Below are positions 13,632 through 34,914 of a stretch of DNA of 64,000 nt, in pieces (within the stretch, counting starts at the first letter, position 1; each line of letters opens with the position of its first letter). A model generated the notes under the pieces. It searched no databases, was not told the DNA's origin, and saw nothing but the letters and a program-made list of their open reading frames with translations. The translations under genes and the position numbers were made by a program. This stretch comes from Aquisalimonas lutea (lineage in GTDB: Bacteria > Pseudomonadota > Gammaproteobacteria > Nitrococcales > Aquisalimonadaceae): NCBI RefSeq assembly GCF_030409225.1, contig NZ_JAUFPK010000001.1, positions 1,648,733 through 1,712,732 on the forward strand, in the 5' to 3' direction.

Positions 13632-14147
13632 TCACGCCACGTCCAGCGGGCTTCGCACGCCTTTGCCGCCCCGGACAAGACGCCCGCAGCGGGAGAACTC
13701 AACATCCTTGATGCGCGGCCGAACGCACTCCATCAGCCGCAGCCCGGCGCCGTAAAGCAAAGATGCCATCAGCCAGCGCGTGCCATCCAGATGGGCGAGA
13801 ACAGCACGGATCTCCGCCCGTGTGAGCACGACCGGCAGCCGCGCAGGCTTCCTGGCGCGCTCAACACTCTGTATGGCGTCGAGCTACAGGCCCAGCACCT
13901 CCCGGTAAAGAAACAGGAGAGCGCTGAAGGCCTGATTCTGCGTGGACGCAGCCACGTTCTTTCGTGCCGCCAGGTGGGTCAGAAAGGCCTCAACTTCCGG
14001 GGCCCCCATATCCCGCGGATGCCGCTTGCCGTGGAAGAGAATATAGCGTCGAATCCAGTCGACGTAGCTCTTTTCCGTGCGAATGCTGTAGTGCTTGCGG
14101 CGAATCCGATCACGGACCTCGTCCAGCAGCTTCAGCGCCTGCTCCAT
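13632..14147 (-). pseudogene. intI: integron integrase intI, inactivated (in-frame stop and loss of catalytic C-terminus)
   Basis: This is a tyrosine recombinase of the IntI family, read on the minus strand, divergent from the cassette array. From ATG 14147 (GGGAG upstream) the N-terminal core-binding domain is intact ([20 protein letters not shown], then [19 protein letters not shown]). A TAG at 13886-13884 follows REVLGL. The same frame then resumes with clear IntI text: VERARKPARLPVVLTRAEIR and LLYGAGLRLMECVRPRIKDV, containing the first catalytic Arg of ARLRLMEC type. It stops at 13632 after GKGVRSPLDVA. About 140 residues, including the RxxR/H boxes and nucleophilic Tyr, are missing. A strict reading frame would give only the N-terminal domain, so no recombinase activity is expected. 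Confidence 0.85.
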
Positions 14148-14214
14148 GGCGACCTTGCTCCCTGTCAAAGTAATGTGTTCGACCACGTCAAGCCTAGCGT
14201 CGCCGCCACATCGT

Positions 14215-14290
14215 GGCAAGTGAGTGCATCTTATCCGTCACTGATGACGCGATTTAGCACGTCGATACCGATGTCTACTTTTAGTTAGGC
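14215..14290 (+). other. putative attI site and cassette insertion point
   Basis: The stretch lies between intI and the first cassette. The core site GTTAGGC at 14284-14290 marks the first cassette boundary. The extent to the left is inferred, since attI sites have little sequence conservation. Confidence 0.6.
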
Positions 14291-14298
14291 TCAAAAAG

Positions 14299-14811
14299 AT
14301 GAAGTTTCGGGACCTACTCGATCTCCCATACAACGAACGCAATGGCATCATTGAACTGGAGGCGATCATTGAAGCGCTTCCCAACACACCAATTGAGGTG
14401 GCGAAACAGGTCTATCGAGATCACGGGCGAAACGGAGAGCATCAACAAGAGTATGGGGACCTCGATATTGGTTCCCTGTCGTGGGAGAAAAGGGAGCTCG
14501 CTGCCGCAAATATTCAGTCGTGCTTCATGTCGTCTCGGTTTTCCGAATGGGCGAACAGAGTCAGTGAAAGGATTGATCAGTTCGAACGTGTTGGATGGCA
14601 GTGCATTGATGTCAGGGAAGATGTTTGGCGGAATTGGGAAAAACACCAAACTTGGGTGACTAAGCCAGTATTTGTTCGTCGTGATCTGGTCGGTGTAGAA
14701 GAGGGCCTGCATCTTGTAGAAGGGCATACAAGGGTAGGGGTTCTCCGTGGGCTGCTAAGCCGATCACTGATTTCCGGGAGTAGTGTTCACGGGGTTTGGT
14801 ATGGAGCCTAA
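14299..14811 (+). CDS. cassette 1: hypothetical protein, 170 aa
   Basis: This is the first gene of the array, starting 9 bases after the attI core site. The N-terminus (MKFRDLLDLPYNERNGIIEL) is acidic and helical. The C-terminal third contains KPVFVRRDLVG then LHLVEGHTRVGVLRGL. This pattern, a hydrophobic strand followed by a G-H-x-R motif, is reminiscent of ParB/Srx-type domains but too short for a firm call. The position next to attI usually means most recent insertion and strongest expression from Pc in active integrons. Function unknown. The stop lies within the left core of the following attC. Confidence 0.75.
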   Translation: MKFRDLLDLPYNERNGIIELEAIIEALPNTPIEVAKQVYRDHGRNGEHQQEYGDLDIGSLSWEKRELAAANIQSCFMSSRFSEWANRVSERIDQFERVGWQCIDVREDVWRNWEKHQTWVTKPVFVRRDLVGVEEGLHLVEGHTRVGVLRGLLSRSLISGSSVHGVWYGA

Positions 14812-14886
14812 CAAGGCCGTAAACACGGACGCATTTTCCGTTCGCTGTGCTCACTACAAATGCGCCGGTTACGGCTGGCGTTAGGT
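14806..14886 (+). repeat. attC of cassette 1
   Basis: Left core GCCTAAC and right core GTTAGGT bound an imperfect inverted repeat of 81 bases. Confidence 0.85.
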
Positions 14887-14919
14887 TGAATTCATCTGAG
14901 AATGGGGAGACTAGATGCA

Positions 14920-15237
14920 ATGATCAAGAGAATCTGGCACGGCTGGACAACGCACGAGAACGCCGATAAGTACGAAACTCTTCTCAAGGAAGAGATATTT
15001 CCGGGCATTGTCGCAAAGAGCATTGCCGGATATAGAGACATTCAACTGCTGCGTCGGCCACATGACGATGAAGTCGAGTTCATTACGATCATGACGTTTG
15101 ACTCATGGAATTCGGTCAAGGAGTTTGTTGGTGAGGACCTGTCAGTGTCTTACGTTCCCGCAAAGGCCAAAGAGGTTCTCTCCCGATATGATGATCGATC
15201 ACAGCACTATGAAGTGCGGGAACATTTGTCGTACTAA
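14920..15237 (+). CDS. cassette 2: antibiotic-biosynthesis-monooxygenase (ABM)-like protein, 105 aa
   Basis: I chose ATG 14920 because GGGGAG lies about 10 bases upstream and the ABM fold begins there (MIKRIWHGWTTHENADKYET). The dimeric alpha/beta barrel pattern continues through IAGYRDIQLLRRPHDDEVEF, ITIMTFDSWNSVKEF and ends YDDRSQHYEVREHL. Family members include quinol monooxygenases and many of unknown activity; the 'WHGW...LLRR...TIMxFDS' version is common among integron cassettes. It is probably cytoplasmic. Substrate unknown. Confidence 0.8.
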   Translation: MIKRIWHGWTTHENADKYETLLKEEIFPGIVAKSIAGYRDIQLLRRPHDDEVEFITIMTFDSWNSVKEFVGEDLSVSYVPAKAKEVLSRYDDRSQHYEVREHLSY

Positions 15238-15273
15238 AAGGATAGGCGTGTCCGCGGATGCAAAGGCTACGTA

Positions 15274-15349
15274 ACCTAACAAAAGCTTCAACTCGGACCG
15301 CCTTTTCCGCTGGCGCTACAAAGCCGGCCGGTTAAGATTGGCGTTAAGC
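15274..15349 (+). repeat. attC of cassette 2
   Basis: ACCTAAC to GTTAAGC, 76 bases, with internal arms around CCGGCC and the TTCCGCTGGCGCTACAAAG loop type. Confidence 0.85.
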
Positions 15350-15365
15350 GCTAGATCGGAGAACG

Positions 15366-15776
15366 ATGGATCCCGCAATTCTTTCCGCAATTATCGTGGC
15401 TGTCGCGACACTTTCTGCGGCTGTTCTCGGATCGTGGTTGCAGCATAGACGGCAGTTACCGGCATCGCGAAAAGGAGGAAACTCGTTCGAGCCGGACGAG
15501 GACGACATATATTTTCTGACCTATTTGCTCCACGACGGTTATGAGCAAGATCGGCCAATGTCGACTACCGAGCTTGCGCAGCACCATGACAGGTACGCGC
15601 CACTGGAGCTGGAGGTCAAACTGATACGGTTGGAAAGGAATGGCTTCGTGTCGAGAGCTAATAAGAAGAATTCAAGCATCGGAGATTGGCGGATACTCCC
15701 GCACGGAATCGAGTATATGATGGCAGATGGGCATCAACTTCATGATCTCGTGGAAGAAGACCGGCGTAGCGCTTAA
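15366..15776 (+). CDS. cassette 3: hypothetical single-TM protein with a wHTH-like C-terminal domain, 136 aa
   Basis: The N-terminal TM helix (MDPAILSAIIVAVATLSAAV) is followed by a short basic segment (WLQHRRQLPASRK). Then comes a soluble domain, FEPDEDDIYFLTYLLHDGYE, with a winged-helix-like arrangement: MSTTELAQHHDRYAPLELEV, then KLIRLERNGFVSRAN and a possible wing GDWRILPHGIEYMM. This is a plausible membrane-tethered sensor or regulator, but there is no named family. GGAGAACG precedes the ATG. The stop overlaps the attC left core. Confidence 0.7.
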   Translation: MDPAILSAIIVAVATLSAAVLGSWLQHRRQLPASRKGGNSFEPDEDDIYFLTYLLHDGYEQDRPMSTTELAQHHDRYAPLELEVKLIRLERNGFVSRANKKNSSIGDWRILPHGIEYMMADGHQLHDLVEEDRRSA

Positions 15777-15851: not shown

Positions 15852-16735
15852 ATGACGAGGGAGGCATTCTTGCGGATTCGTAACAAAGGGAGGGCTTGGT
15901 TTGAGAAAACCCAGGTTCTCTGCGCTAATCTCAATCGGAGCCAGAAGTTCTTCTTTTTCGGTGCAGTTGTGGCTCTGATAGCTGCCTTTTGGTGGATGAC
16001 GCCCTTCCGGCAGCCGTTCGTATCCTTCGTCATCTTGAGTGGCCTGCTCTTTGTGTCAGGGGTGTTTCAGACATCTTGGTTGTGTATTCCAAGGTTTGGG
16101 CGACCACGCTGGGGAAGGCGCTACTCCTTCTACTATATGCGTTATCCACTACGGCTGCGTACGCACTCGCGGCGCAACTTGTAAATGAAGTGGTCGCATT
16201 TGAAACATCTATGCTAGACAATGCAGTTGTCTTCGTCGCTATTCTTCTCGTTCCTATATTTGTCTTTATTTCGACCTATGTCCTGTTTGCGCTGGTGTTC
16301 CTGTTTGGGCAACTATACCTGATTCTGGTTGCGCACGCGGATGTGCTCAAGCATGACGAATGCTTCAAATCTGTCGTGCCCAAGAACCTGGAACGCTATC
16401 CCTTTAAAACACTTGCCGCAAGAGCAATTATATACCCTGTTGCCTTAGGTTTTCTCTGGGGCTCTGCATCGCATATGCTGCCGAGGTATGGGAGCTTTAT
16501 AGAGACTTCGGCAGCATCTTTCATTTATCACCTAGAGGCGGTTAGATTCTCTAGGTGCAGCAATGTCCCCATCGGTGCGAAGGTGATCCCGGTGAATGAT
16601 ACTGAGATAATCGTCGTAAGATGGAGCGATGGCGAGTATTCGTTCGAACCAATGGCTTGCGATCCAAAGATTTCGTCTAACAATAGCTTCAACCCGACCG
16701 GCCTCTCCGCTGTCGCTCCGAGGCCGGCGCGTTAA
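15852..16735 (+). pseudogene. cassette 4: hypothetical multi-TM protein split by a frameshift
   Basis: Two overlapping frames make one sensible protein. The first, from ATG 15852 (GAGGTAAGTAAA upstream), reads KFFFFGAVVALIAAFWWM then FVSFVILSGLLFVSGV. The second continues from about 16060 as SDILVVYSKVWATTLGKALL, then ALSTTAAYALAAQLVNEV and VAILLVPIFVFISTYVLFAL. A one-base loss between about 16050 and 16080 explains the break. The joined product would have four or five TM helices and a soluble C-terminal domain (VIPVNDTEIIVVRWSDGEYS). The final residues (NNSFNPTGLSAVAPRPAR) are encoded by the attC. A sequencing error is possible; a second start at 15989 is less likely to be used. Function unknown. 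Confidence 0.65.
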
Positions 16736-16991: not shown

Positions 16992-17079
16992 CTCCAACAA
17001 TTGGCTCGAGGCGACGCCGGCACACGTGGCTGCCTGTAATCGGGCGCTCCGGGCGGCGCGCCTCAGCCAACCGTTAGAA
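16992..17079 (+). repeat. attC of cassette 5
   Basis: CTCCAAC to GTTAGAA, 88 bases. It is nearly the same sequence as the attC at 24753-24840, including GGCGACGCCGGCACACGTGG. Confidence 0.85.
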
Positions 17080-17105: not shown

Positions 17106-17390
17106 ATGTTACTCGAGATCTTTGTGATGTTAGTCATAGTAAGCACAGCGGTTTGGGTGGCGGCGACCAGATTTGTTCGTTCGCGTGGCTACCCGGGGTG
17201 GTATTTAAGCTACATCGGGGCTGGGTCGACCAACCCGACTTGGGGGTCGTTATCCGCTATCAAGCGATCGGGAAATCCGCACGATCGGCGCCTGGCGGTC
17301 TTTTACTGGCGGGCACTGATACTGACGTACATCACGTTCTTTGTTGTATTTGGTCTGCTCGCCTACCGATATCTGGGCGGAGCTAGCTGA
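17106..17390 (+). CDS. cassette 6: hypothetical protein with two TM helices, 94 aa
   Basis: The N-terminal TM is MLLEIFVMLVIVSTAVWVAA. A middle loop is rich in Gly, Ser and Arg (GYPGWYLSYIGAGSTNPTWG). The C-terminal TM is ALILTYITFFVVFGLLAY. This hairpin membrane protein, probably with both ends on the same side, resembles no family I know. It is one of the several small membrane proteins in the array. Confidence 0.65.
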   Translation: MLLEIFVMLVIVSTAVWVAATRFVRSRGYPGWYLSYIGAGSTNPTWGSLSAIKRSGNPHDRRLAVFYWRALILTYITFFVVFGLLAYRYLGGAS

Positions 17391-17442: not shown

Positions 17443-17511
17443 TTCTAACACGTCACTGAAGCCGACTGGCCTACGCTTCGCTCCGCCCAGCGGCTTAGTT
17501 TTGCGTTGGGC
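17443..17511 (+). repeat. attC of cassette 6
   Basis: TTCTAAC to GTTGGGC, 69 bases, same general type as the attC of cassette 3. Confidence 0.85.
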
Positions 17512-17523
17512 AAAGGATACGTT

Positions 17524-18186
17524 TTGAATACAGATCAGCCTGTAGTGTTTCTGTGCTGTCACTGCGGAAACCGGACACCGCATACTCTCCGGTTTAGTTA
17601 TACAGCCGAACATCTTTACGAGGAGGTCGATCGGCGCTATTACGAGCCGTTCACCTATTACGCTTTCCTGTGCGGCACGTGTACTGGCCTTACACTGCTC
17701 GGTCGCTTCGACCATGAAACCTCCGAGCATGATCCCGACTACGACGGGCCGCCACGTCCGCAACTCTACCCAAACGGACCGGAAATCGAACCGGCTAGGC
17801 ATACCGTGCCTGGCGGCAACCCTGTCCCCTTGCCGGTCCGAAAGGCATTCCAAGAGGCATGGCCGTTGCGTCACACGGCGCCAGGCGCCTTCGCGAATCA
17901 GATTCGGCGGACTCTTGAGTTTATCTGCCGCGATCAAGAGGCAGTTGGCCAAAATTTGCACATGCAACTCCAGGATCTGGCAAAGCGAGGCGTTTTTCCT
18001 CCGGACCTCGCGGATATCGCTGACCTAGTGCGAGAGCTTGGAAATATTGGCTCCCATGCGTCCACGCAGGAGATAAGCATTTGGGACGGCGAGCTGCTTG
18101 ACGAGCTTTTTCGTATGATTCTTGAATATGTCTATGTCGGGCCCGCGCGCGTACAGCGTCTTAAGCAAAGGATGGGGCACGAGTAG
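17524..18186 (+). CDS. cassette 7: DUF4145-domain protein with a zinc-ribbon, 220 aa
   Basis: I prefer the TTG at 17524, with AAAGGA 7 bases upstream; an in-frame TTG at 17506 lies inside the attC core. The N-terminus holds a two-CxxC zinc ribbon: VVFLCCHCGNRTPHTL and YYAFLCGTCTGLTLLG. The C-terminal half is the helical DUF4145 domain: ANQIRRTLEFICRDQEAVGQ, then LQDLAKRGVFPPDLADIADL and ELGNIGSHA. DUF4145 occurs in restriction-linked and other anti-phage proteins as well as in isolation, so a defence role is possible but unproven. Confidence 0.75.
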   Translation: MNTDQPVVFLCCHCGNRTPHTLRFSYTAEHLYEEVDRRYYEPFTYYAFLCGTCTGLTLLGRFDHETSEHDPDYDGPPRPQLYPNGPEIEPARHTVPGGNPVPLPVRKAFQEAWPLRHTAPGAFANQIRRTLEFICRDQEAVGQNLHMQLQDLAKRGVFPPDLADIADLVRELGNIGSHASTQEISIWDGELLDELFRMILEYVYVGPARVQRLKQRMGHE

Positions 18187-18269: not shown

Positions 18270-18797
18270 ATGCTTGCGGAAATCCTCAATTATTTCTCGG
18301 ATGATCCGATGCGGGCCCTCTATCTCGCTGGTGGCACCGGTGGCCTGTGGTTTTGGATCCAGGAGTGGAGAAACCGGGTTCGCGTTCGCGTGTGGCTCCT
18401 GTCGGAGCAGCCGTACGTATCAACCGCGGAAATGGACGAGCGTTCGATCCTTACTTTCGAGGCGGAGAATATCGGCACCCAAGCGACATCGGTCGAGCCT
18501 TTGGTGTCAGTGAGGGCGTATACGGCCCGTCGGCAACGCATCGAGCGGGATGGAAAGGTTCTCGAATCCGAACGTGACCTACAACCGTTTCAAGCCAAGA
18601 CCCTTTCCGTCCAAGTAAAGGCGAACCCAGATCACACGATGCTGGTGTTCCGGACCTATCACTTCCGCTTCACGCGTGGCGCCTCGAGAACGGTCCGCGT
18701 CTGGTCGGCTCACCACCGGACGGTAAACTGGTTTCGATTCCAGTATGAACGCGCGCGCTTTCTTAAGCGTGGAGAGTATCGTGAACCGGGAACTTAA
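18270..18797 (+). CDS. cassette 8: hypothetical protein, 175 aa
   Basis: It starts MLAEILNYFSDDPMRALYLA with a short hydrophobic stretch (LAGGTGGLWFWI), then a beta-rich domain: VRVRVWLLSEQPYVSTAEMD, ILTFEAENIGTQATSVEPLV, DLQPFQAKTLSVQVK and TMLVFRTYHFRFTRG. The strand pattern suggests an immunoglobulin-like or C2-like sandwich held at the membrane. No family recognised. The stop falls in the left core of attC. Confidence 0.65.
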   Translation: MLAEILNYFSDDPMRALYLAGGTGGLWFWIQEWRNRVRVRVWLLSEQPYVSTAEMDERSILTFEAENIGTQATSVEPLVSVRAYTARRQRIERDGKVLESERDLQPFQAKTLSVQVKANPDHTMLVFRTYHFRFTRGASRTVRVWSAHHRTVNWFRFQYERARFLKRGEYREPGT

Positions 18798-18850
18798 CAA
18801 TGCGCTCAACCGGACGCTCGTTCCTCGCGCCGGTTAGCTACACGTTGGGC
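18792..18850 (+). repeat. attC of cassette 8
   Basis: ACTTAAC to GTTGGGC, 59 bases; belongs to the near-identical short attC group (CTCAACCGGACGCTCGT...). Confidence 0.9.
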
Positions 18851-18852: not shown

Positions 18853-19242
18853 ATGAAAACAATCAGGGGAATCTACATGGGTTACTACTTCTTCATTCTA
18901 TATCTGTTCCGGAGAAACGAAGTATCGTTGGAAGTGCCGATGTACATTGAGGCATCTGATTCGGCGGACGCGAAAGATAAAGCTGAGGAGTTAATGAAGG
19001 CCGTGCAATCGCACTTCGAGCTCCTTATGGAACCGCCAACGCCCCAGCGTCTCGTGGAGTCAATAAATGGCGCTCGGTTTGAACCGTTTTTTACGCGAAT
19101 CAAGAACAATGAGCACGTAGAGATCAATCTTCCGCTAGATTTCGGTGCCCGCGTATACCAGTACCAACTCAACACACCGGTGGGGACGCTTGAGGCCCAC
19201 GTCCTAATTGGAGGGCAGCATGCGCCTATCTATAGCTTGTAG
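18853..19242 (+). CDS. cassette 9: hypothetical protein, 129 aa
   Basis: The ATG lies only 2 bases after the attC core, so a cassette-internal start further in, MGYYFFILYLFRRNEVSLEV at 18877, with AGGGGAATC upstream, is a real alternative. The protein alternates strands and helices (VPMYIEASDSADAKDKAEEL, MKAVQSHFELLMEPP) and ends in LEAHVLIGGQHAPIYSL. No recognised family. Confidence 0.65.
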   Translation: MKTIRGIYMGYYFFILYLFRRNEVSLEVPMYIEASDSADAKDKAEELMKAVQSHFELLMEPPTPQRLVESINGARFEPFFTRIKNNEHVEINLPLDFGARVYQYQLNTPVGTLEAHVLIGGQHAPIYSL

Positions 19243-19321: not shown

Positions 19322-19969
19322 GTGAGCTTCAATGATCTAAGCGACCGCAAGGCCGTGCTAAAAGCTATCTCTGAGTACGACTCTATGGGCAGAGAGGCAT
19401 TCTTGGGGCACTACGGCTTCGGTAAGGCGCGAATGTTCTTCCTCGTGTACCAAGGGAAGTCATATGACTCCAAGGCCATTGTTGGTGCGGCCTACGGACA
19501 TCAATTCGGAGAACCGTTAACCCCTACAGACTTTTCGGGTGGCCAGGCCACGGTGGTTCCGAAGCTCGCAGATCTTGGATTTACGGTGACGGCTCAGGAA
19601 CTAAACGAGCGATCGTCGGCTCTGCCGGAGGAGGTCCCAGAAGCAACGTGGGAGGGAGCACGTCGATCGGTGACGGTCAACTCATTCGAGCGGAGCCCGG
19701 CCGCACGCGCGGCGTGCATTGAAGAACATGGCAGCCACTGCTCCATTTGCGGTTTCGACTTTGCCGCAGAGTTCGGGCCGGAGTTCGAAGGGTACATCCA
19801 TGTTCATCATCTCGTGCCGATTGCCAATGTCCGCCAGAGATACAAGGTAGATCCCAAAAATGATCTCCTGCCCGTGTGCCCCAACTGCCATGCTGCCTTG
19901 CATTATGGCGGCAAAGATCGAACACCTGATGAAGTTCGCAAATTGCGAAAGATTGCGCGCGGAAAGTGA
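19322..19969 (+). CDS. cassette 10: HNH endonuclease with a ScoMcrA-like N-terminal domain, 215 aa
   Basis: It starts at GTG 19322 after GGGGAGAGCAA. The N-terminal 85 residues (DRKAVLKAISEYDSMGREAF, then FFLVYQGKSYDSKAIVGAAY) match the N-terminal 'head' domain found in ScoMcrA-type restriction enzymes. The C-terminal HNH nuclease is intact: CIEEHGSHCSICGFDF, YIHVHHLVPIANVRQRYKV and NDLLPVCPNCHAALHYGG, with two CxxC zinc pairs and the catalytic His-His. The central SRA or sulfur-binding domain of larger McrA proteins is missing. It probably cleaves DNA; a restriction or defence role fits the architecture, but target modification cannot be told. Confidence 0.85.
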   Translation: MSFNDLSDRKAVLKAISEYDSMGREAFLGHYGFGKARMFFLVYQGKSYDSKAIVGAAYGHQFGEPLTPTDFSGGQATVVPKLADLGFTVTAQELNERSSALPEEVPEATWEGARRSVTVNSFERSPAARAACIEEHGSHCSICGFDFAAEFGPEFEGYIHVHHLVPIANVRQRYKVDPKNDLLPVCPNCHAALHYGGKDRTPDEVRKLRKIARGK

Positions 19970-19981: not shown

Positions 19982-20041
19982 GCCCAACCAAACCTTGCAG
20001 CCGACGCTCGTACCTCGCGCGGCTGAAGGTAACCGTTAGCT
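19982..20041 (+). repeat. attC of cassette 10
   Basis: GCCCAAC to GTTAGCT, 60 bases, a relative of the short attC group with GCAGCCGACGCTCGT. Confidence 0.88.
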
Positions 20042-20042: not shown

Positions 20043-20741
20043 ATGAAGGACATTACACTCGCGATCTCTGTGACGGCGTTGGCCGCTGGATACGTCTCAC
20101 TCGCGGCGAGCCATTACTTCCGTTATCGCATCGAACTTATTCGGTGGGAGAGGACATTATTTGAGTCTGCGCTTCTTGGTGGCCTGTATTTTGTAATTGC
20201 CCGCGTTGGTATCGAAGGAGCAATTCGGGAAAATCCCAAGCTGGCTGACTACGAACCCGTCGAATTTTTTAAAGATGCGGTGCCATTCGCGTTCAGCGGA
20301 AGTCTACTGTTAACCGTTCTATTAAGCCTGTTAGTCGCACTGGTTATCAACATAGTAGTGACGAAGGAGGCGGCGCTAGTACAGATAACTCGGCGATACG
20401 CGGATAACATGCGGAATACCCTCCTCGAAGCCGCAGAGCGAAGCAAGCCGGTATTATTGAAGAAGAGCGATGGTACCGTAGTGATTGGCTTCGTCTGTGC
20501 GCTACCGATAATTGGCGCAGGGAACAATTGGGTAGGTCTGGTACCGCTAGTGTACGGAAAAGTGGACAACTTCGGTAAAGTAGTAATTGATGAGACATTG
20601 ATTCAAGAGGCAAATCCCGACGGCGGAACCGACCAACCATATGAGAGCCGCAGTCGAGCGGAAAAGGTCTATATACATATGGATGATGTCAATGAAGTTA
20701 GCCAGTTTGAGTCAAATCCATACGAGCGAATGAGCAGCTAA
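20043..20741 (+). CDS. cassette 11: hypothetical membrane protein, 232 aa
   Basis: The first three hydrophobic segments are LAISVTALAAGYVSLAAS, TLFESALLGGLYFVIARVGI and FSGSLLLTVLLSLLVALVIN. They are followed by a cytoplasmic domain of about 120 residues (ALVQITRRYADNMRNTLLEA, PVLLKKSDGTVVIGFVCALP, EKVYIHMDDVNEVSQFE) that looks beta-rich. The ATG is 2 bases past the attC core. It ends within the next attC left core. Function unknown. The membrane-plus-sensor layout is seen in defence-type proteins, but there is no direct evidence. Confidence 0.7.
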   Translation: MKDITLAISVTALAAGYVSLAASHYFRYRIELIRWERTLFESALLGGLYFVIARVGIEGAIRENPKLADYEPVEFFKDAVPFAFSGSLLLTVLLSLLVALVINIVVTKEAALVQITRRYADNMRNTLLEAAERSKPVLLKKSDGTVVIGFVCALPIIGAGNNWVGLVPLVYGKVDNFGKVVIDETLIQEANPDGGTDQPYESRSRAEKVYIHMDDVNEVSQFESNPYERMSS

Positions 20742-20808
20742 CAAGGCGCTACAGCGCGACGCCGGAACCGCTTGGCGGTTCCGGCGCGGCTGAGCGTTCG
20801 CGTTGGGC
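20736..20808 (+). repeat. attC of cassette 11
   Basis: AGCTAAC to GTTGGGC, 73 bases, arms GCCGGAACCGC/GCGGTTCCGGC. Confidence 0.88.
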
Positions 20809-20822: not shown

Positions 20823-21194
20823 ATGGAGCCATCGTTGTATCAGGAAGCGAAGCTTGTCCTTGTTTCGACGCTCGGTCTGTCGAAAGATGCGCTGCATGTG
20901 CACGCCGGGTTCATTGTGTTCTTCGCTGCGGTGGTTCTGCTGCGCAAACCGCTCTGTGCTATAGCGCCGCTAGCCCTCGTGGTAGTAGCCGCCATTGCGG
21001 CAGAGCTGCTGGATATGAGAGAGGATATTATTAGCCTCGGTTACTGGCGCTGGGCAGCCAGTATCGGCGATATCACGAACACCGTATTTTGGCCGACGCT
21101 CGTGTGGGGGCTCGCAGGGCTGAGTATGCTGCGAAAAGGCAAGAGGCCCAACCAAGCGCTCCAGTCGACCGCGCCGAAGCGGCGCGGAGGCTGA
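20823..21194 (+). CDS. cassette 12: small integral membrane protein, possibly VanZ-like, 123 aa
   Basis: ATG 20823 follows AGAGGAGGCC. Three or four TM helices are clear: AGFIVFFAAVVLLRK, LCAIAPLALVVVAAIAAELL and FWPTLVWGLAGLSML. The motifs LSKDALHVHAGF, AAELLDMRED and GDITNTVFWP are arranged like VanZ/YdjM-type small membrane proteins (conserved HxxxG, ELLxxxxx and DxxxNT). VanZ relatives affect glycopeptide tolerance, but most are uncharacterised. The last 15 residues (PNQALQSTAPKRRGG) come from translation into the attC. Confidence 0.6.
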   Translation: MEPSLYQEAKLVLVSTLGLSKDALHVHAGFIVFFAAVVLLRKPLCAIAPLALVVVAAIAAELLDMREDIISLGYWRWAASIGDITNTVFWPTLVWGLAGLSMLRKGKRPNQALQSTAPKRRGG

Positions 21195-21209
21195 GCTTTC
21201 TCGTTGGGC
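21146..21209 (+). repeat. attC of cassette 12
   Basis: GCCCAAC to GTTGGGC, 64 bases; the upstream ORF reads into it. Confidence 0.87.
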
Positions 21210-25612: not shown

Positions 25613-25618
25613 TATGAA

Positions 25619-25625
25619 GCCCAAC
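25619..25625 (+). repeat. attC remnant between the two ABM genes
   Basis: GCCCAACAAG is the left core and spacer of an attC, but no right core follows before the next ribosome site (CGGGAG), so the two cassettes are fused. Confidence 0.55.
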
Positions 25626-25642
25626 AAGTTCGGGAGTGCAGA

Positions 25643-27663: not shown

Positions 27664-27736
27664 GCCTAACAAGGCGCTGCACCTGACCGCCGTTCCGCTC
27701 CGCTCCACGGCGGCAAGTGAGCTTCGACAGTTAGTC
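27664..27736 (+). repeat. attC of cassette 22
   Basis: GCCTAAC to GTTAGTC, 73 bases, arms CACCTGACCGCCG/CGGCGGCAAGTG. Confidence 0.88.
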
Positions 27737-28470: not shown

Positions 28471-28473
28471 CCG

Positions 28474-29000: not shown

Positions 29001-29276
29001 GTGGCTCGGATCGTCGGAGTAATAGCTATTATCGTGGTGATTGCTCTAAACGTGCACCGTTTCACCCCGCTCACAGAATTTTGGCGTTCCTCGACTGAGA
29101 GTGTTTCGGAAGGGTGTCGAATAAAGGGAAATATCAGCATGAACGGAGAACGCATTTACCACGTTCCAGGCAGTGAATGGTACGACGAGACACAAATCGA
29201 CAGGTTGAAGGGAGAGCGATGGTTTTGCTCGGAAGACGAAGCACGGGCGGCAGGATGGCGTAGGGCTTATGAATGA
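29001..29276 (+). CDS. cassette 25: sunset-domain protein, single TM, 91 aa
   Basis: GTG start. An N-terminal TM or signal anchor (MARIVGVIAIIVVIALNVHR) precedes the sunset domain: CRIKGNISMNGERIYHVPGS, then WYDETQIDRLKGERWFCSED and EARAAGWRRA. The same domain occurs at the C-terminus of thermonuclease-like proteins, where the two Cys (CRIKG and WFCSE) form a small zinc or disulfide site. Here it is alone and probably exported. Function unknown. Confidence 0.8.
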   Translation: MARIVGVIAIIVVIALNVHRFTPLTEFWRSSTESVSEGCRIKGNISMNGERIYHVPGSEWYDETQIDRLKGERWFCSEDEARAAGWRRAYE

Positions 29277-29409: not shown

Positions 29410-29670
29410 ATGGAAGTCCATGTAGAGGTATTTACGGACCGCATGGAGGTTTCTGGCGGCGGTAAGTCTCCAGCTATACTGCCGGCAGTGCCCTATCCCG
29501 GTAAACGGATTCTCGTCGGTGCCTTCGAGCCAGCGGTGAATTGCTCGCGACAGGCTCTAGACGAAATCGGCGCTACGGGCGCTCTCAAGAGGATGCCGGC
29601 GGTGCAGATCCACGCCATGGAGATGAATGAAGGCGGCCTGAGCGAGGTAAAAGAGCGCTGTTTGCGATAG
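29410..29670 (+). CDS. cassette 26: hypothetical protein, 86 aa
   Basis: Short soluble protein: MEVHVEVFTDRMEVSGGGKS, PAVPYPGKRILVGAFEPAVN, GALKRMPAVQIHAMEMNEGG and LSEVKERCLR. The first two strands and 'RILVGAF' are reminiscent of the tail of MreB/FtsA-fold-associated or YjaA-like small proteins, but this is too weak to use. The stop is well before the next attC, so the gene looks complete. Confidence 0.6.
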   Translation: MEVHVEVFTDRMEVSGGGKSPAILPAVPYPGKRILVGAFEPAVNCSRQALDEIGATGALKRMPAVQIHAMEMNEGGLSEVKERCLR

Positions 29671-29721: not shown

Positions 29722-29782
29722 GTATAACACGGCGCTCGAGGCGACGCTCGCAAGGCGCGCGCGCCTCAGCTCTGCGTTAGGT
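29722..29782 (+). repeat. attC of cassette 26
   Basis: GTATAAC to GTTAGGT, 61 bases, arms GAGGCGACG/CGCGCGCCTC. Confidence 0.87.
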
Positions 29783-29793: not shown

Positions 29794-30039
29794 ATGCCGA
29801 ACGGAAAACCGGGTGATCATCCGATAACAGATATCTGCGTTCATGGATGGGACTATTTCTCGCCCCGAGTGGACGACCTTATTCGCCAAGTCTGCAAGTT
29901 GGGTGTCTCGGCGCAGATTGAAGATCTCGTTCTGGAGAATGACCGCCTAACGAACCGGGAGCCCGATCTAGAAAGAATGGAGCGGAAGCTGATGCAGATC
30001 TTAGATAGGGTGGAGCGTGAGAAAGGCAGGCGCTCCTAA
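29794..30039 (+). CDS. cassette 27: hypothetical protein with a coiled-coil tail, 81 aa
   Basis: An N-terminal globular part (MPNGKPGDHPITDICVHGWD, SPRVDDLIRQVCKLGVS) is followed by a charged heptad-like helix, LERMERKLMQILDRVEREKG. GGAGGAAC precedes the ATG. The stop lies in the left core of the next attC. No family recognised. Confidence 0.6.
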   Translation: MPNGKPGDHPITDICVHGWDYFSPRVDDLIRQVCKLGVSAQIEDLVLENDRLTNREPDLERMERKLMQILDRVEREKGRRS

Positions 30040-30120: not shown

Positions 30121-30945
30121 ATGAATCTAGCTAATCAGCCACTTGACGTCTCTTTACCGGCCGCACCCTTGCGGCCGTATATCAGTCATTACTGGTTGAG
30201 TCTGAACAACCACGACGAGATCTACTCAATCGTGCCAGATGGTGCTGTGGATGTCGTCGTTGTGAGTGGCTCAGCCGCTTACCGAGTGGATGCTTTTGGC
30301 ACGACGACGAAGAACACGGACGTACAACTCGATGTAGGCAAACACTACTTGGGTATTCGTTTCAGACCCGGCCAAAGCCGACATTTCTTGGACGCCAAGA
30401 CCTCTGAACTGACCAATACTGTGCGTTCCGCCGAGGGCGGATTCCTGCCGGACATGCTTCGGGTGGCCGAATCAGTTTCTACTGAGTCGCTTTTCGCTCG
30501 CTTGGATGCTGTTCTATTGCAGCACCTTAAGCGCCAATCGCCCGGTCGCTCCCGGATTGATGAAATCATTTGTTACATCGAAGCGACGCAAGGCCCAGTG
30601 CGCGTTTCCGAATTGTCGAATATGTACTGCAAAAGCCGTCGGCAATTTGAACGGGCGTTTCTTGATGTGGTTGGTCTTCCACCTAAGCTGTTCGCAGAGA
30701 TTATTCGGTTTCGCCGCGCTTCTGCTCTGCTTGCTGAGTCGAAGCTCCCCATTGCGGAGATAGCCGCCAACCTTGGCTATACGGACCAAAGCCATCTCGC
30801 GCATGAGTTTGCTCGCTTCTTAGGGCAGACCCCGTCACGACTGCGCGAACATGCCGCATTTTTACAAGACGGAGGCCGTTTTACCGAACACAATGGGACT
30901 CCTTTTACCGTTGATAAGGAGTCTATCCATGATGAATATCAATAG
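30121..30945 (+). CDS. cassette 28: AraC-family regulator with DUF6597-type N-terminal domain, 274 aa
   Basis: The N-terminal sensor domain reads [40 protein letters not shown] and [15 protein letters not shown] (DUF6597-type, one-component regulators). The C-terminal double HTH is intact: [19 protein letters not shown] and [20 protein letters not shown]. It overlaps the next (VOC) gene by 17 bases, so the two form a regulator-enzyme cassette. It probably activates itself and its partner in response to a small compound. Confidence 0.88.
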
Positions 30946-31387
30946 TTTCTATCCGGTTATCATGACCGAGGACGTGGCGGAATCGAAAGCCTTCTGGATT
31001 GCTCATTTCCCCTTTGAGGTTGTTTTTGATGCTGGGTGGTACGTGAGTCTGAAGGCGAATCAGCAAGTCCCGTTCGAGCTGGCTCTTCTTGACTCAGTTC
31101 ACCCGACCGTACCGGAAGAGTTCCGCGGAAAGTTCAATGGTGGGCTGCTCCTCAATATCGAGGTCGAAGATGTGGATGCCGAGTATGAGCGAATGCACAA
31201 GATCGGGCTTCCTATTCATTTACCGATACGGTCAGAGGAATTCGGCCAACGACACTTCATCACATCTGATCCGAATGGCGTGCTCATCGACGTAATCAAG
31301 GTTACACCTCCTTCGGCGGAATATGCGTCTCACTATGATGAGGAAACACTGAGGACCATGGGCGCCAATCCCAGTGCAAAAAAGTGA
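30929..31387 (+). CDS. cassette 28: VOC-family protein, 152 aa
   Basis: ATG 30929 with TAAGGAG 8 bases upstream sets the start; the ORF is open further upstream only because it overlaps araC. The VOC fold reads [60 protein letters not shown] and [17 protein letters not shown]. The D in DVIKV replaces the common metal-binding Glu. AraC plus VOC in one transcript is a typical arrangement for inducible dioxygenase or lyase-like resistance proteins. Confidence 0.85.
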
Positions 31388-31561
31388 CCCGGAGCCGCCT
31401 ATAGATCGGTTGCAGCGGCGGCGCTAACGCGCCGTCGCTGAACCACAGCGTTTGTGGCGGTGGTCTTGAGGTGCCCGTCCGCTTAGAGTGTTACAGCTGG
31501 TGTTTCCGTCGCGGAGGTGAAAGGAATCGTGAACACAAGGGGTTCTGCAAGGAAGACGCGC

Positions 31562-32452
31562 ATGGAGAGAGTTCTTGAGCACACCTTCGTCGGCGTCGTC
31601 GTCTTGGTGTTGTTCGGCGGCGGCGCATTCATGCTTGTGCTCTGGTTCTTCGCGGATGCCGATTCGTCCGCCGAAGGACGGTCCATTGCGTTGTTGATGG
31701 GCGTGGCTTTCTTGGGGATGGCCGTTTTGTTGGTCTACGGATGGAGGCGTTCGTCGACGGACTCGACAAGCGCGGTGGCGGAGCGGGTCGGTGTGCCTGA
31801 CTCAGTGCAGCGTGCGGAAGATGCTCACCCGAAGACCAACATCCCGAATGCGCTGCGCGGTCAGAATCCGCCGAGGGGTGCCGTGATCGTTGCTGGTCGG
31901 TCTATCTGGTCGTCGCGAGTCCTGCTCACGGTGGCCTTGACCATCGGCGTGGGGCTGCTCTATCTCGGCTGGAACCTCGAGAGGATCTTTCCCGAATGGC
32001 ACGTCTCTGCCGGTTACCTATTTATGGGCTTCGGCGCACTTCTGCTCATCCTTGGTCTATGGCCGGGCAACTGGCGCAAGCGTACTCTTGGTTTCATCGC
32101 GATGCAGGAGGGGATCTACGCTCACGGTCAGGGGAGCTACCCCGATGGCCACGAATGGGCCACTCCGGAGACGCGGTGGCTTTTCGTGCCTTGGACGAAC
32201 GTCGTCGACGTGCGCGAGGGACTTGTTCTCAAGGTAGCCGGCGGCCCGCCGGGCGGGGCGTGGTGGCCCTCAACCAAACTCAGCCTGCGTGTAACCCCCG
32301 ACGAAGCCCGGGAATGGTTCCCCTATGCGGACGATGAGCCAAGTGACGATGGAATGAGCCGGATCGTGTCACTGGACTATTCCGACAGCGATCCCTCGCC
32401 CAAGGAAACGGTTCCAAGACTACAGCAGCTCTGGGCGCCATCACGCGTCTGA
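31562..32452 (+). CDS. hypothetical membrane protein, 296 aa (integron array, no attC at its 5' side)
   Basis: I chose ATG 31562 because AAGGAAG lies 6 bases upstream; an in-frame GTG at 31517 has poorer support. Four TM helices are seen as two pairs: TFVGVVVLVLFGGGAFMLVL, IALLMGVAFLGMAVLLVYGW, then VLLTVALTIGVGLLYLGW and YLFMGFGALLLILGLWPG. The C-terminal cytoplasmic domain is PH-like: RTLGFIAMQEGIYAHGQG, WLFVPWTNVVDVREGLVLKV and KLSLRVTPDEAREWFPYADD. There is no clear attC between it and the upstream VOC gene, so they may share one cassette. 31388-31561 shows only an imperfect hairpin (GGCGGCGCTAACGCGCCGTCG). Confidence 0.65.
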   Translation: MERVLEHTFVGVVVLVLFGGGAFMLVLWFFADADSSAEGRSIALLMGVAFLGMAVLLVYGWRRSSTDSTSAVAERVGVPDSVQRAEDAHPKTNIPNALRGQNPPRGAVIVAGRSIWSSRVLLTVALTIGVGLLYLGWNLERIFPEWHVSAGYLFMGFGALLLILGLWPGNWRKRTLGFIAMQEGIYAHGQGSYPDGHEWATPETRWLFVPWTNVVDVREGLVLKVAGGPPGGAWWPSTKLSLRVTPDEAREWFPYADDEPSDDGMSRIVSLDYSDSDPSPKETVPRLQQLWAPSRV

Positions 32453-32803: not shown

Positions 32804-33421
32804 ATGTCCGGCGAGCTGGATTTTTCGATCGAGGGGGAGGGCCCGGTCGCCATGGAAGTGCGGCGGCGCGGGTTCGATCGCTTTCTCGCGCTTGGCGAGC
32901 ACGTCGCCCGGTTGCCCTATGGAAGACCCGCATGTTCTAACGATGTTCTAACGGTTCTGAAGGAACAGCGGGGCACGTGTAGTTCCAAGCACAGACTGCT
33001 CGCTGCCGTGGCGCAAGAATGTGGGCATGTGGAAGTCGAGCTTGTCGTCGGCCTTTACGCAATGTGCGAGCAGAACACGCCAGGCATAGGAACCGTCCTG
33101 GAGCCTGCCGGATTCGATTATATTCCGGAGGCACACTGCTATCTCCGACTCGGCGGTCGCCGATACGACTTCACCGGCTTAAGCAGCGGCAGCACGTCGC
33201 CGTTTGAGGCTCTGCTCTCTGAGCATGTGGTATCCACGGTGCACCTCGCGGACGAAAAGGAACGGATACACAGAGACGCCGTCCAGAGGTGGGCCGACTC
33301 GCATGCGGTGTCTTTCGCGGATGCATGGGCTCTGCGGGAGGCCTGCATCCAAGCGCTAACGTCCAGTAACACGCTCAAGCCGACCGGCTCTTTCTCTGGT
33401 GCTACAGAGCCGGGGGTTTAG
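32804..33421 (+). CDS. cassette 29: hypothetical protein, transglutaminase-like pattern, 205 aa
   Basis: AGGAAAGAAG before the ATG. The core reads RFLALGEHVARLPYGRPACS, VLKEQRGTCSSKHRLLAAVA, VELVVGLYAMCEQNTPGIGT, PEAHCYLRLGGRRYDFTGLS. A Cys (GTCSSKH), a His (PEAHCYL) and an Asp (RYDFTG) line up in the order of a transglutaminase/cysteine-protease-fold triad. This family of cassette-encoded proteins is common and uncharacterised. The C-terminal tail (LTSSNTLKPTGSFSGATEPG) is translated from the attC. Possible peptidase or amidase activity is inference. Confidence 0.7.
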   Translation: MSGELDFSIEGEGPVAMEVRRRGFDRFLALGEHVARLPYGRPACSNDVLTVLKEQRGTCSSKHRLLAAVAQECGHVEVELVVGLYAMCEQNTPGIGTVLEPAGFDYIPEAHCYLRLGGRRYDFTGLSSGSTSPFEALLSEHVVSTVHLADEKERIHRDAVQRWADSHAVSFADAWALREACIQALTSSNTLKPTGSFSGATEPGV

Positions 33422-33435
33422 CGACGGGGTTCGGC
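33364..33435 (+). repeat. attC of cassette 29, degenerate right core
   Basis: CAGTAAC at the left; right core GTTCGGC (consensus GTTRRRY), 72 bases; arms CCGACCGGCTC/GAGCCGGGGG. Confidence 0.72.
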
Positions 33436-33459
33436 TGCGGGCGGACTTGGAGAGACTTT

Positions 33460-34071
33460 ATGACGCCGGAGTTTTTCGTAACCTCGCTCATCGTCGTACT
33501 GATGCCGGGCACGGGCGTCCTTTACACGCTCGCGTTTGGCATTGGCAGCGGGTGGCGCGCAAGCGTGGTTGCCGCCTTTGGCTGTACGCTTGGCATTGTT
33601 CCGCACATTCTCGCAAGTATTGCCGGCCTCGCTGCGCTGTTGCATACAAGCGCGGTGGCGTTTCAGGTCGTCAAGTACCTTGGCGTCGCGTATCTGTTTT
33701 ACATGGCATGGCGTGTTTTGCGCGAGGGCGGAGCCCTCCGGGTATCGGGAGGGAGAACGGCCGCCTCCGACGTCAAGATCATTGTCGACGGCCTGCTATT
33801 GAATATCCTGAATCCCAAACTCTCTCTGTTCTTCCTGGCGTTTCTCCCCCAGTTCGTGCCGAGCAATACGTCCGAGCCAACACACTACATGCTCGGATTG
33901 GCAGCTATATTCATGCTTCTGACATTTGCAATTTTCGTTGGCTACGGAGCGTTTGCCTCGGCTACGCGACGCTACATAATCTCGAAGCCCAGCGTGATGG
34001 CGTGGTTCAGGCGCGGTTTTGCGGGTGCGTTTGTTGCGCTCGGAATGCGGCTGGCGCTGTCCGACCGGTAA
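33460..34071 (+). CDS. cassette 30: LysE/RhtB-family exporter, 203 aa
   Basis: Six-TM LysE fold: MTPEFFVTSLIVVLMPGTGV (PGxG motif), FGIGSGWRASVVAAFGCTLG, AFQVVKYLGVAYLFYMAWRV and VDGLLLNILNPKLSLFFLAF (NPK motif). Amino-acid or small-metabolite efflux. It is GC-richer than the first LysE cassette at 27760 and belongs to a different branch, so the array carries two independent exporters. The first 40% of its sequence (33504-33553) matches a fragment at 46244-46293. Confidence 0.9.
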   Translation: MTPEFFVTSLIVVLMPGTGVLYTLAFGIGSGWRASVVAAFGCTLGIVPHILASIAGLAALLHTSAVAFQVVKYLGVAYLFYMAWRVLREGGALRVSGGRTAASDVKIIVDGLLLNILNPKLSLFFLAFLPQFVPSNTSEPTHYMLGLAAIFMLLTFAIFVGYGAFASATRRYIISKPSVMAWFRRGFAGAFVALGMRLALSDR

Positions 34072-34099
34072 TGAGGTGGCTCGTTCTCGATCAACCACC

Positions 34100-34172
34100 G
34101 CCGAACAATATGCCTGAGCCGGTAGGGAAACCGTTGGTTGGTTTCTGCATCGGCTGAGCTTCATCGTTATAT
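34100..34172 (+). repeat. attC of cassette 30
   Basis: GCCGAAC to GTTATAT, 73 bases; left core one base off consensus. Confidence 0.8.
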
Positions 34173-34233
34173 CCTTGCCAATCCCGCGCAGGATGAACAC
34201 GAACATGAAGGAACAAGAGATAGGCCCGAAGAC

Positions 34234-34452
34234 GTGAACATCGTTGAACTTCTTTTTGGAATCTTGTTTACCGGAATGGCGCTATGGGGCGTTGTCGGTG
34301 GCGAGATTTACGTGCTAGCTGGAAAAGCGAGTGCGGGTGAAGGTGGTTGGGCTTCGTTCGGTGATCACCCAGTGATTTTCTTGGTGGCATTCTTTCTGTA
34401 TCTGTTGAGCGGTGTGGTTCTGATACGGGGCGGACTGAAAGGAGACAAATAA
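34234..34452 (+). CDS. cassette 31: small membrane protein, 72 aa
   Basis: I start at GTG 34234 (MNIVELLFGILFTGMALWGV), because the upstream part of the frame crosses the attC. Two TM helices (IVELLFGILFTGMALWGVVG and PVIFLVAFFLYLLSGVVLIR) are joined by a hydrophilic loop (YVLAGKASAGEGGWASFGDH). No ribosome site is convincing. Unknown function. Confidence 0.5.
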   Translation: MNIVELLFGILFTGMALWGVVGGEIYVLAGKASAGEGGWASFGDHPVIFLVAFFLYLLSGVVLIRGGLKGDK

Positions 34453-34453
34453 C

Positions 34454-34526
34454 TATTAACAATGAGGCACGGGCCACCCGGCTTCTCCGCCTCGCTCCAA
34501 ACCGGCCGCTTAGCGATACGTTGGAG
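34454..34526 (+). repeat. attC of cassette 31
   Basis: TATTAAC to GTTGGAG, 73 bases, CCGGCTTCTCCGCCTCGCTCC loop type. Confidence 0.8.
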
Positions 34527-34543
34527 GGCAAAGGAGTGCAGTC

Positions 34544-34914
34544 ATGAAGAAGGTGCTCGCAGGCATATTCGGATTCATAGCAACTGCCGTCGTCGCGCAG
34601 GAGTCTCAGTGGCCTCCTTTACCAGAGGACGGTTTTATTTCTGGTCGTGCCGCAGAGCAACAAGACCTCGAAGCGGGTAACGCGGTTTTTGTCGCGGCTG
34701 TGGATGGAGTGTCTATTGGTGAGCCAATTGACATAATAATTCCGCAATATGCTTTCCACATCGAACAGGATGAAAAACCCCCGTCATTATTGTTCAGGCT
34801 GAATCGGCGCAGGGGCTGAAGATTGTCGGCGCCCGAAAGTTCGATGGCAATGAGCTGGTTGCTACTCTTCCAGAATTCGAGTTGCTGGGCACGGAGGGGA
34901 GGCCCCCAAAGTAG
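34544..34914 (+). pseudogene. cassette 32: exported hypothetical protein broken by a frameshift
   Basis: The first frame starts with a signal peptide (MKKVLAGIFGFIATAVVAQE) and runs to about 34780 (QYAFHIEQDEKPP). The run GAAAAACCCCCG then shifts the frame. In the alternative frame the protein continues sensibly as VIIVQAESAQGLKIVGARKF and DGNELVATLPEFELLGTEGR to a TAG at 34914. A one-base loss in the A5/C5 run explains it. The intact product would be about 122 aa and periplasmic. A sequencing error at the homopolymers is possible. Confidence 0.65.

What the first reader, a model, noticed from the sequence alone, without database searches (positions are those of the whole stretch)
13632..34914. 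Large chromosomal integron array with about 30 cassettes and a dead integrase
About 27 well-formed attC sites and several degenerate ones, arranged head to tail in one direction away from a divergent intI, show a sedentary integron. Most cassettes encode unknown or barely known proteins, many of them membrane proteins. Cargo differs strikingly in GC content from the flanking core. Such arrays are best known in Vibrio and some Xanthomonas and Pseudomonas; here one sits beside nrdJab.
Basis: partly seen in the sequence, partly recalled or inferred. Interest (0 to 1): 0.85.

Follow-up and report, generated by a model that had tools for sequence, protein, structure and literature searches.

The report
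Old gene-cassette array, integrase dead
This is a real chromosomal integron, a row of about 31 captured genes whose capturing enzyme has been broken by a deletion; related species carry integrons, mostly broken too, at the same place, so it is a good new example of a known kind of system.

Summary
A covariance model finds 27 attC sites (E<0.01) between 14.8 and 34.5 kb, all in one orientation, plus 4 degenerate ones: 31 cassettes. Held-out sequence profiles recover 11 of 13 and 12 of 13 such sites of the other half; shuffles give none. The divergent intI (13632-14147, minus strand) is dead: a TAG at codon 88 and about 150 missing internal codons, both ends kept. No other IntI is seen in the genome, so the array looks frozen unless an integrase comes from outside. 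7 of 9 informative genomes, this one included, carry intI or attC there (four with internally deleted intI), and 80 named NrdJ loci, mostly of other lineages, carry none. But the integrases at this place are not one lineage, so one ancient arrival is not proven. The array continues as wreckage at 46.9-48.4 kb, and two more small dead integron loci exist in the genome. It parallels the ilvD-linked Xanthomonas integrons (PMC12444791): a new member of a known kind.

The parts
10530..12689 (+). nrdJ (719 aa), core gene that marks the shared integration place
   Evidence: best named relative 80% identical; present in 10 of 14 genomes of the family, own included
12710..13432 (+). nrdJ-associated TSCPD-domain gene (nrdJb)
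   Evidence: PF12637 TSCPD, 30.4 bits
13632..14147 (-). intI remnant: N-terminal half fused in frame to the native C-terminal end (..RGGKGVRSPLDVA*), about 150 codons missing
   Evidence: TIGR02249 positions 1-159/315, 207.8 bits; 78% identical to intact IntI of G003; C-terminal end seen by comparison with it
13884..13886 (-). in-frame TAG, codon 88 of the intI remnant
   Evidence: translation
14219..14290 (+). presumed attI; ends at the crossover box GTTAGGC (14284-14290)
   Evidence: homology with G004 runs to 14290 and stops there; alignment with G004, G002, G003, G006 (the G011 row does not align); left limit inferred
14806..14886 (-). attC 1; cassette 14285-14880, ORF 14299-14811 unknown
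   Evidence: 53.2 bits
15274..15349 (-). attC 2; ORF 14902-15237 unknown
   Evidence: 61.1 bits
15771..15839 (-). attC 3; ORF 15366-15776 unknown, one TM
   Evidence: 54.3 bits
16675..16749 (-). attC 4; membrane protein split over two frames (15852-16184 and 15989-16735), probably a frameshifted gene
   Evidence: 43.2 bits; ORFs
16992..17079 (-). attC 5; short cassette without a convincing gene
   Evidence: 45.2 bits
17443..17511 (-). attC 6; ORF 17106-17390 membrane protein
   Evidence: 55.7 bits
18194..18254 (-). attC 7; ORF 17506-18186 DUF4145
   Evidence: 43.3 bits; PF13643; missed by the held-out profile
18792..18850 (-). attC 8; ORF 18270-18797 unknown
   Evidence: 61.4 bits
19243..19301 (-). 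attC 9; ORF 18853-19242 unknown
   Evidence: 62.2 bits; folds as single-stranded DNA, z -3.8
19982..20041 (-). attC 10; ORF 19322-19969 HNH endonuclease, like type IV restriction enzymes
   Evidence: 57.3 bits; PF01844, PADLOC mREase_IV 2.8e-16
20736..20808 (-). attC 11; ORF 20043-20741 membrane protein
   Evidence: 67.4 bits; z -5.0
21146..21209 (-). attC 12; ORF 20823-21194 membrane protein
   Evidence: 50.9 bits
21621..21692 (-). attC 13; ORF 21228-21677 NUDIX hydrolase
   Evidence: 61.8 bits; PF00293
22106..22164 (-). attC 14; ORF 21724-22101 glyoxalase/VOC
   Evidence: 59.2 bits; PF00903
22877..22951 (-). attC 15; ORF 22190-22825 glutathione S-transferase, 88.8% identical DNA in another genus (G011)
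   Evidence: 50.6 bits
23351..23409 (-). attC 16; ORF 22970-23347 unknown
   Evidence: 56.4 bits
23883..23954 (-). attC 17; ORF 23439-23840 membrane protein
   Evidence: 63.9 bits
24365..24436 (-). attC 18; ORF 23972-24364 membrane protein
   Evidence: 66.3 bits
24753..24840 (-). attC 19; ORF 24450-24725 membrane protein
   Evidence: 41.4 bits
25133..25204 (-). attC 20; ORF 24849-25259 membrane protein that runs through the site
   Evidence: 57.9 bits
25952..26024 (-). attC 21; two ABM-domain genes 25313-25612 and 25643-25927, perhaps two fused cassettes
   Evidence: 67.9 bits; PF03992 twice; z -2.9
27664..27735 (-). attC 22; divergent pair SDR (26149-26880, minus) and TetR regulator (26951-27619, plus), the only recognised reversed gene
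   Evidence: 61.6 bits; PF00106, PF00440
28912..28971 (-). attC 23; LysE exporter 27760-28374 and a weak HIT-like ORF 28384-28956
   Evidence: 48.6 bits
29310..29397 (-). attC 24; ORF 29001-29276 unknown, one TM
   Evidence: 39.1 bits; missed by the held-out profile
29722..29782 (-). attC 25; ORF 29410-29670 unknown
   Evidence: 52.8 bits
30034..30105 (-). degenerate attC 26; ORF 29794-30039 unknown
   Evidence: 16.4 bits; folds no better than shuffles
31397..31456 (-). degenerate attC 27; AraC regulator 30121-30945 and glyoxalase 30851-31387
   Evidence: 16.9 bits
32619..32715 (-). degenerate attC 28; ORF 31517-32452 membrane protein
   Evidence: 16.3 bits; z -4.35
33361..33435 (-). degenerate attC 29; ORF 32804-33421 unknown
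   Evidence: 16.3 bits
34100..34172 (-). attC 30; ORF 33460-34071 LysE exporter
   Evidence: 23.9 bits, E 0.0034; PF01810
34457..34526 (-). attC 31; ORF 34234-34452 small membrane protein
   Evidence: 30.7 bits
46853..46906 (-). degenerate attC of the distal wreck, after a glyoxalase-like ORF (by eye)
   Evidence: 10.2 bits, E 0.65; held-out profile E 0.9
47263..47340 (-). degenerate attC of the distal wreck, after a small ORF (by eye)
   Evidence: 11.8 bits, E 0.3; held-out profile E 0.97
48324..48395 (-). attC of the distal wreck, after an oxidoreductase-like gene (by eye)
   Evidence: 31.9 bits, E 6e-5; not hit by the held-out profile at E<1

Best explanation
A sedentary chromosomal integron that has lost its integrase. 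It sits downstream of nrdJab with a divergent intI and an attI; while IntI worked it inserted circular cassettes at attI by recombining the folded bottom strand of attC, so new cassettes entered next to intI and older ones were pushed away (mechanism from established knowledge of integrons). In this lineage intI then lost about 150 internal codons, probably between the short RDGKG and RGGKG motifs, and has a stop, so capture and shuffling ceased. Shown here: the sites, their orientation and structure, the broken intI, no other IntI found in the genome, the place shared with relatives. Inferred: that the far attC sites are worn because those cassettes are older; that death was recent compared with the split from the relative G004; that the first cassettes are still read from a promoter near attI.
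For: 27+4 sites in one orientation, covarying stem, held-out test. intI remnant and stop. No other IntI: the other tyrosine-recombinase hits of the own genome skip the stretch 181-236 of the profile, where the IntI-specific patch lies (place of the patch recalled), or are short fragments. Shared place in 7 of 9 informative family genomes and no attC at E<=0.1 or intI at over 50 bits in 80 named NrdJ loci, 65 of which have at least 3 kb downstream. Homology with G004 ends at the crossover box, 14290. The GST cassette is 88.8% identical in another genus, while nrdJ-side DNA of that genome is 78.6% identical; the shared stretch starts at an R' box. Site score falls with distance from attI, Spearman -0.43, p 0.014, 31 sites. 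dN/dS of the window's remnant against the G004 remnant 0.18, of intact G003 against G004 0.09.
Against: The score gradient rests on a model trained on 25 of the 31 sites, mostly well-formed ones. No sigma-70 promoter was found at 13400-14400, so expression from the platform is unproven. The attI stretch is found by DNA search only in G004 (G003 matches only over the start of intI, G008 over 25 bases; 4 of 14 genomes in all, own included). IntI of G011 at the same place is not of the same lineage, which speaks against simple descent from one ancestral integron. No second strain was available. The frameshift in cassette 4, the TAG and the deletion could in principle be assembly errors.
Confidence: 0.96

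Rival explanations
1. An array brought in recently by a plasmid or transposon rather than a long-resident chromosomal integron.
For: Low GC of the cargo; the genome has two other integron loci whose intI fragments are of different lineages; the nrdJ-linked IntI of G011 is of another lineage than that of G000 and G002.
Against: Place beside nrdJab shared by 7 of 9 informative genomes; array DNA matches 3 plasmid records over 1% of the query each at about 78% identity, and 0 phages.
Confidence: 0.03
2. The integrase was inactivated because the array lies inverted to replication, which makes attC excision costly (seen in Vibrio cholerae, PMC11023631).
For: In that paper experimental evolution inactivates the integrase after inversion (abstract and passages).
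Against: dnaA is at C1:670064 (+) and the window starts at C1:1648733 (+) of a 4.2 Mb genome, so the fork should run along the + strand and the attC bottom strands lie on the leading-strand template, the usual orientation; the nrdJ locus of G002 has the same sense.
Confidence: 0.05
3. The shortened intI genes of this family are kept by selection as small DNA-binding proteins (N-terminal domain) that occupy attI or attC.
For: In all 4 nrdJ-linked remnants compared, the large internal deletion is in frame and the native stop is kept; dN/dS is below 0.2 in the nine pairs with finite dS.
Against: The window's copy has a TAG at codon 88; the G004 copy has a 2-base insertion just after the start codon that puts the rest out of frame; outside the family, of 8 large internal deletions that I judged clear among 46 loci, 3 are in frame and 5 are not, about the third expected by chance; low dN/dS fits recent death as well.
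Confidence: 0.03

Closest known systems
ilvD-linked chromosomal integrons of Xanthomonas (PMC12444791: abstract and section 11 read)
   Same: Chromosomal place beside a core gene shared by related species, intI lost or truncated in many, arrays of mostly unknown cassettes
   Different: Anchor gene is nrdJab; another gammaproteobacterial family; vertical descent of intI is supported there, not shown here
Sedentary chromosomal integron of Vibrio cholerae (PMC11023631: abstract and passages)
   Same: Long one-way array, attC bottom strands on the leading-strand template (inferred here)
   Different: About 31 cassettes, not well over a hundred (recalled); integrase dead; no toxin-antitoxin cassette recognised, but these were not searched for exhaustively
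intI pseudogenes surveyed by Nemergut et al. 2008 (PMC2426708: abstract and passages)
   Same: Broken intI, several intI genes in one genome
   Different: Here the deletion is internal and both gene ends remain; the paper speaks of stops, frameshifts and major insertions or deletions in general

Membership tests
Sedentary chromosomal integron | Gene of the integron-integrase family, divergent from the array | tested here: met
   As a remnant only: TIGR02249 207.8 bits over half the profile, below the cut-off of 265; minus strand, array on plus strand. For function see the rows on active integrons
Sedentary chromosomal integron | attI next to intI, where homology between relatives ends | tested here: met
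   Homology with G004 up to GTTAGGC at 14284-14290 and not beyond; other relatives align less well; recombination not tested
Sedentary chromosomal integron | Array of attC sites with R''/R' boxes and a structured bottom strand, head to tail | tested here: met
   27 sites at E<0.01 plus 4 degenerate, all same orientation. Of 5 bottom strands folded with DNA parameters, the 3 well-formed sites have z -2.9 to -5.0; of the 2 degenerate ones one has z 0.03 and one z -4.35
Sedentary chromosomal integron | Chromosomal place shared by related species | tested here: met
   7 of 9 informative genomes, own included; G008 by a 31-residue piece at a contig end, G005 by attC only, G004 by intI only; of the two without, G012 shows only 2 kb downstream
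Sedentary chromosomal integron | Vertical descent of the integrase with the host | tested here: inconclusive
   G000 and G002 remnants group with G003 (100/99), but IntI of G011 at the same place falls outside a group of 13 (100/98) that joins them with IntI of other families
Active integron | Full-length IntI with catalytic residues | tested here: not met
   Stop at codon 88, about 150 internal codons missing
Active integron | Cassette order varies between strains | not testable with these tools
   No second strain of the species held
Integron platform | Cassette promoter Pc | tested here: inconclusive
   No sigma-70 match in 13400-14400; shuffles expect 0.2

The most novel reading that the evidence does not exclude
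In this family nrdJab-linked integrase genes were not just lost but cut down more than once, by large in-frame deletions, to a small protein made of the N-terminal DNA-binding domain with the native end, which in G002 and G006 is still an open frame and could bind attI or attC and hold the array quiet; in the window's genome a TAG shortens it further to 87 residues, and in G004 the start is out of frame.
Probability: 0.03. Interest if true: 0.75.

Novelty: new member of a known kind. Interest (0 to 1): 0.42.

Why it matters
It adds a family near the Ectothiorhodospiraceae (placed by NrdJ similarity) to the lineages with a place-bound chromosomal integron that keeps dying and leaving its cassettes behind. 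An array with a dead integrase cannot reshuffle, so cassettes that stay intact in it are the ones a host may be keeping for use: a natural test of which unknown cassette proteins matter. The series of intact (G011), internally deleted (G000, G002, G004, G006) and intI-less (G005) copies at one address allows the decay of an integron to be followed in steps.

Tried and rejected
A strict home-made attC scan found only 3 sites and was dropped for the covariance model. A looser scan listed 38 candidates with evident false ones and was used only to help choose seed sites. Rfam gave 0 hits at gathering score. Idea that dead integrases keep their N-terminal half because it holds the cassette promoter: N-terminal and C-terminal remnants are both common in the class (judged by eye on the lists, not counted formally), and in the family the C-terminal end turned out to be kept, so rejected. 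Idea of selection for in-frame mini-integrases: 4 of 4 large deletions in the family, but 3 of 8 clear cases outside; one search examined 46 loci, and the other 38 were single pieces, ambiguous, cut by contig ends or (two) from the family itself, and were left out of that count. The G004 start frameshift also speaks against it. Inverted orientation as cause of integrase death: not supported. Shared cassettes: of the cassette ORFs compared with 25 family loci only the GST cassette has a close match; the other matches, apart from an antisense frame of the same GST gene, are 24-33% identical and look like ordinary family members. Structure prediction was not run.

Literature searches on this lineage: integron + Ectothiorhodospiraceae + attC, 0 papers; integron + nrdJ, 1 paper, a Cupriavidus genome, listing only; integron-integrase + Chromatiales + attC, 2 papers, listing only; integron + ribonucleotide reductase + cassette array, 3 papers, listing only, titles on other subjects. 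Searches were broader; of their lists I opened PMC12444791, PMC2426708 and PMC11023631. Only open-licence papers are held, so this does not show that the lineage is undescribed.

Full report
What is there. Positions 14,285-34,526 hold 31 gene cassettes read in one direction away from a broken integron integrase that lies on the other strand between nrdJab and the array. I aligned 25 candidate attC sites on their bottom strand; RNAalifold gives 11 pairs, 8 of them with at least one sequence in which both sides changed and the pair is kept. The model built from them finds 28 sites at E<0.01 in the whole window, all on the minus strand, 27 of them in the array, and four more array sites at 16-17 bits. 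Because the model was trained here, I ran a held-out test with sequence profiles: each half's seeds recover 11 of 13 (E<0.05) and 12 of 13 of the E<0.01 sites of the other half; ten Markov shuffles of the region give none with the first profile. 1.39 Mb of DNA around NrdJ in 80 named genomes gives no hit at E<=0.1; a model from this genome's sites could miss very different attC.

The integrase. The match to TIGR02249 covers positions 1-159 of 315 with one TAG. Compared with the intact IntI of the congeneric genome G003, 78% identical over the shared part, the window's gene runs from the start at 14147 to the RDGKG motif, then jumps to the RGGKG motif near the end and keeps the native last residues and the stop at 13632. 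It has 171 codons before the stop; the intact frame has 321, so about 150 are missing, and codon 88 is a TAG at 13884-13886. Most of the catalytic domain is gone (domain layout recalled), so it cannot make a recombinase. The other tyrosine-recombinase matches in the own genome skip the IntI-specific stretch of the profile or are short fragments.

Age of the death. Between the window's remnant and that of G004 dN/dS is 0.18 (130 codons), between intact G003 and the G004 remnant 0.09, between the window and G003 0.13. If drift after death is the source of the excess, death is recent compared with the split of these species. This is a rough Nei-Gojobori estimate with dS above 1 in most pairs, and a few misaligned codons at the junctions are included.

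The place. Ten of 14 genomes of the family, own included, have the NrdJ gene. In nine the contig goes on past nrdJab: intact intI and attC in G011; internally deleted intI in G000, G002, G004 and G006 (attC in G000, G006 and one weak site in G002; none found in the 10 kb of G004); a 31-residue C-terminal piece of intI at the contig end in G008; attC without intI in G005; nothing in G007 and in the 2 kb visible in G012. G003 cannot be judged because its contig ends inside nrdJb; its intact intI sits on another contig, about 6 kb from a proline dehydrogenase gene. The 80 named NrdJ loci (72-80% identical; three carry Ectothiorhodospiraceae or Spiribacter names, the rest other lineages or unplaced) show no attC and no intI at over 50 bits; 65 of them have at least 3 kb downstream and 52 at least 8 kb. 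Deletion end points differ among the four deleted genes, which suggests separate deaths, though nested deletions cannot be excluded. Homology between the window and G004 runs through the intI remnant to position 14290 and ends at the crossover box GTTAGGC, as expected if everything beyond is captured cargo.

One arrival or several? In a tree of 24 IntI sequences the remnants of G000 and G002 group with G003 (100/99). The nrdJ-linked IntI of G011 falls outside a group of 13 (100/98) that holds these three together with IntI of other families (midpoint root, G002 only 34% of columns). So the place is shared, but the integrase at it is not one lineage: either the gene was replaced in one branch or integrons reached this place more than once. 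G002 and G006, of different genera, also resemble each other closely in intI and attI. I did not test host-tree congruence.

Cargo. Of 34 ORFs examined, 14 have at least one predicted transmembrane stretch. Recognised: two LysE exporters, two glyoxalases, GST, NUDIX, two ABM proteins in one cassette, DUF4145, an HNH endonuclease that resembles type IV restriction enzymes, an AraC regulator, and a divergent SDR/TetR pair, the only cassette with a recognised gene on the minus strand. The rest reach no curated cut-off in Pfam in those calls; four short or overlapping ORFs (cassettes 5, 6 and the alternative frames) were not submitted. The GST cassette is 88.8% identical over 668 bases in an integron remnant of G011, another genus, while DNA on the nrdJ side is 78.6% identical between the two; the shared stretch starts at an R' box, and no attC was found after the G011 copy. 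That is evidence that cassettes moved between these lineages while integrases were alive. The array has no long match in plasmids (3 records, 1% of the query) or phages.

Decay. Site scores fall with distance from attI (Spearman -0.43, p 0.014, 31 sites), and three sites in the same orientation at 46.9-48.4 kb score 31.9, 11.8 and 10.2 bits, the three best of a full scan of 34.9-49.0 kb. Only the first of these is significant alone; that the three top hits share strand and spacing is the argument for the other two. The reading that the far end is older follows from the known mode of insertion at attI and is an inference; the training bias of the model works in the same direction as the gradient.

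Orientation. dnaA lies at C1:670064 and the window starts at C1:1648733 of a 4.2 Mb genome, so the array should be co-oriented with replication and the recombining strand should be on the leading-strand template, as described for such integrons (PMC11023631, passages). The terminus was not located.

Comparison. The closest published case that I found is Xanthomonas, where intI sits downstream of ilvD, was acquired early and was inactivated repeatedly (PMC12444791, abstract and section 11). Nemergut et al. found nearly a third of intI genes to be pseudogenes (PMC2426708). Integrons are common in the class at large: of 370 genomes 168 have a match at E<=1e-27 and 147 one above the curated cut-off; of 95 near and far relatives, own included, 23 are above the cut-off. 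The finding is therefore a well-preserved new member of a known kind; its value is the series of living and dead copies at one address.

Noticed in passing
G000 contig C13, about 119.3-123.2 kb (L123 7263-11230): A probable second dead integron of the same genome: a weak intI fragment (TIGR02249 positions 4-64, one TGA, E 0.16; tblastn E 6e-5) followed by three attC sites (52.1, 34.3 and 31.6 bits).
   Followed up: partly
G000 contig C1, about 2262.6-2265.1 kb (L124 7655-10061): A probable third dead integron: a weak intI fragment (positions 5-54; tblastn E 9e-10) followed by two attC sites (42.5 and 29.2 bits), then a phage-type integrase-like ORF of 443 aa.
   Followed up: partly
window 46240-46290: A short stretch that resembles the start of the LysE cassette gene at 33460, upstream of the degenerate distal sites (seen by eye).
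   Followed up: no
nrdJ of relatives: G002 at the equivalent of window 10925-10929; G003 and both G006 copies at about 11505-11540: In-frame insertions of about 1.1-1.5 kb in nrdJ at two different points (open frames of 1120-1219 aa against 719-738), possibly inteins; not tested.
   Followed up: no
window 36433-37059: An Hcp-family (T6SS) gene between the array end and a GMC oxidoreductase.
   Followed up: no
window 56287-56369 and 56799-56873: Two short stretches 91-92% identical to adjoining DNA at L124 7219-7351 near the third integron locus.
   Followed up: no
G129:C4 (L235) and G165:C11 (L227): IntI genes with large in-frame internal deletions and no stop (open frames of 237 and 216 aa) in other families of the class.
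   Followed up: partly
window 25612-25643: A lone R''-like box between the two ABM genes, as if two cassettes had fused by loss of the attC between them (seen by eye).
   Followed up: no
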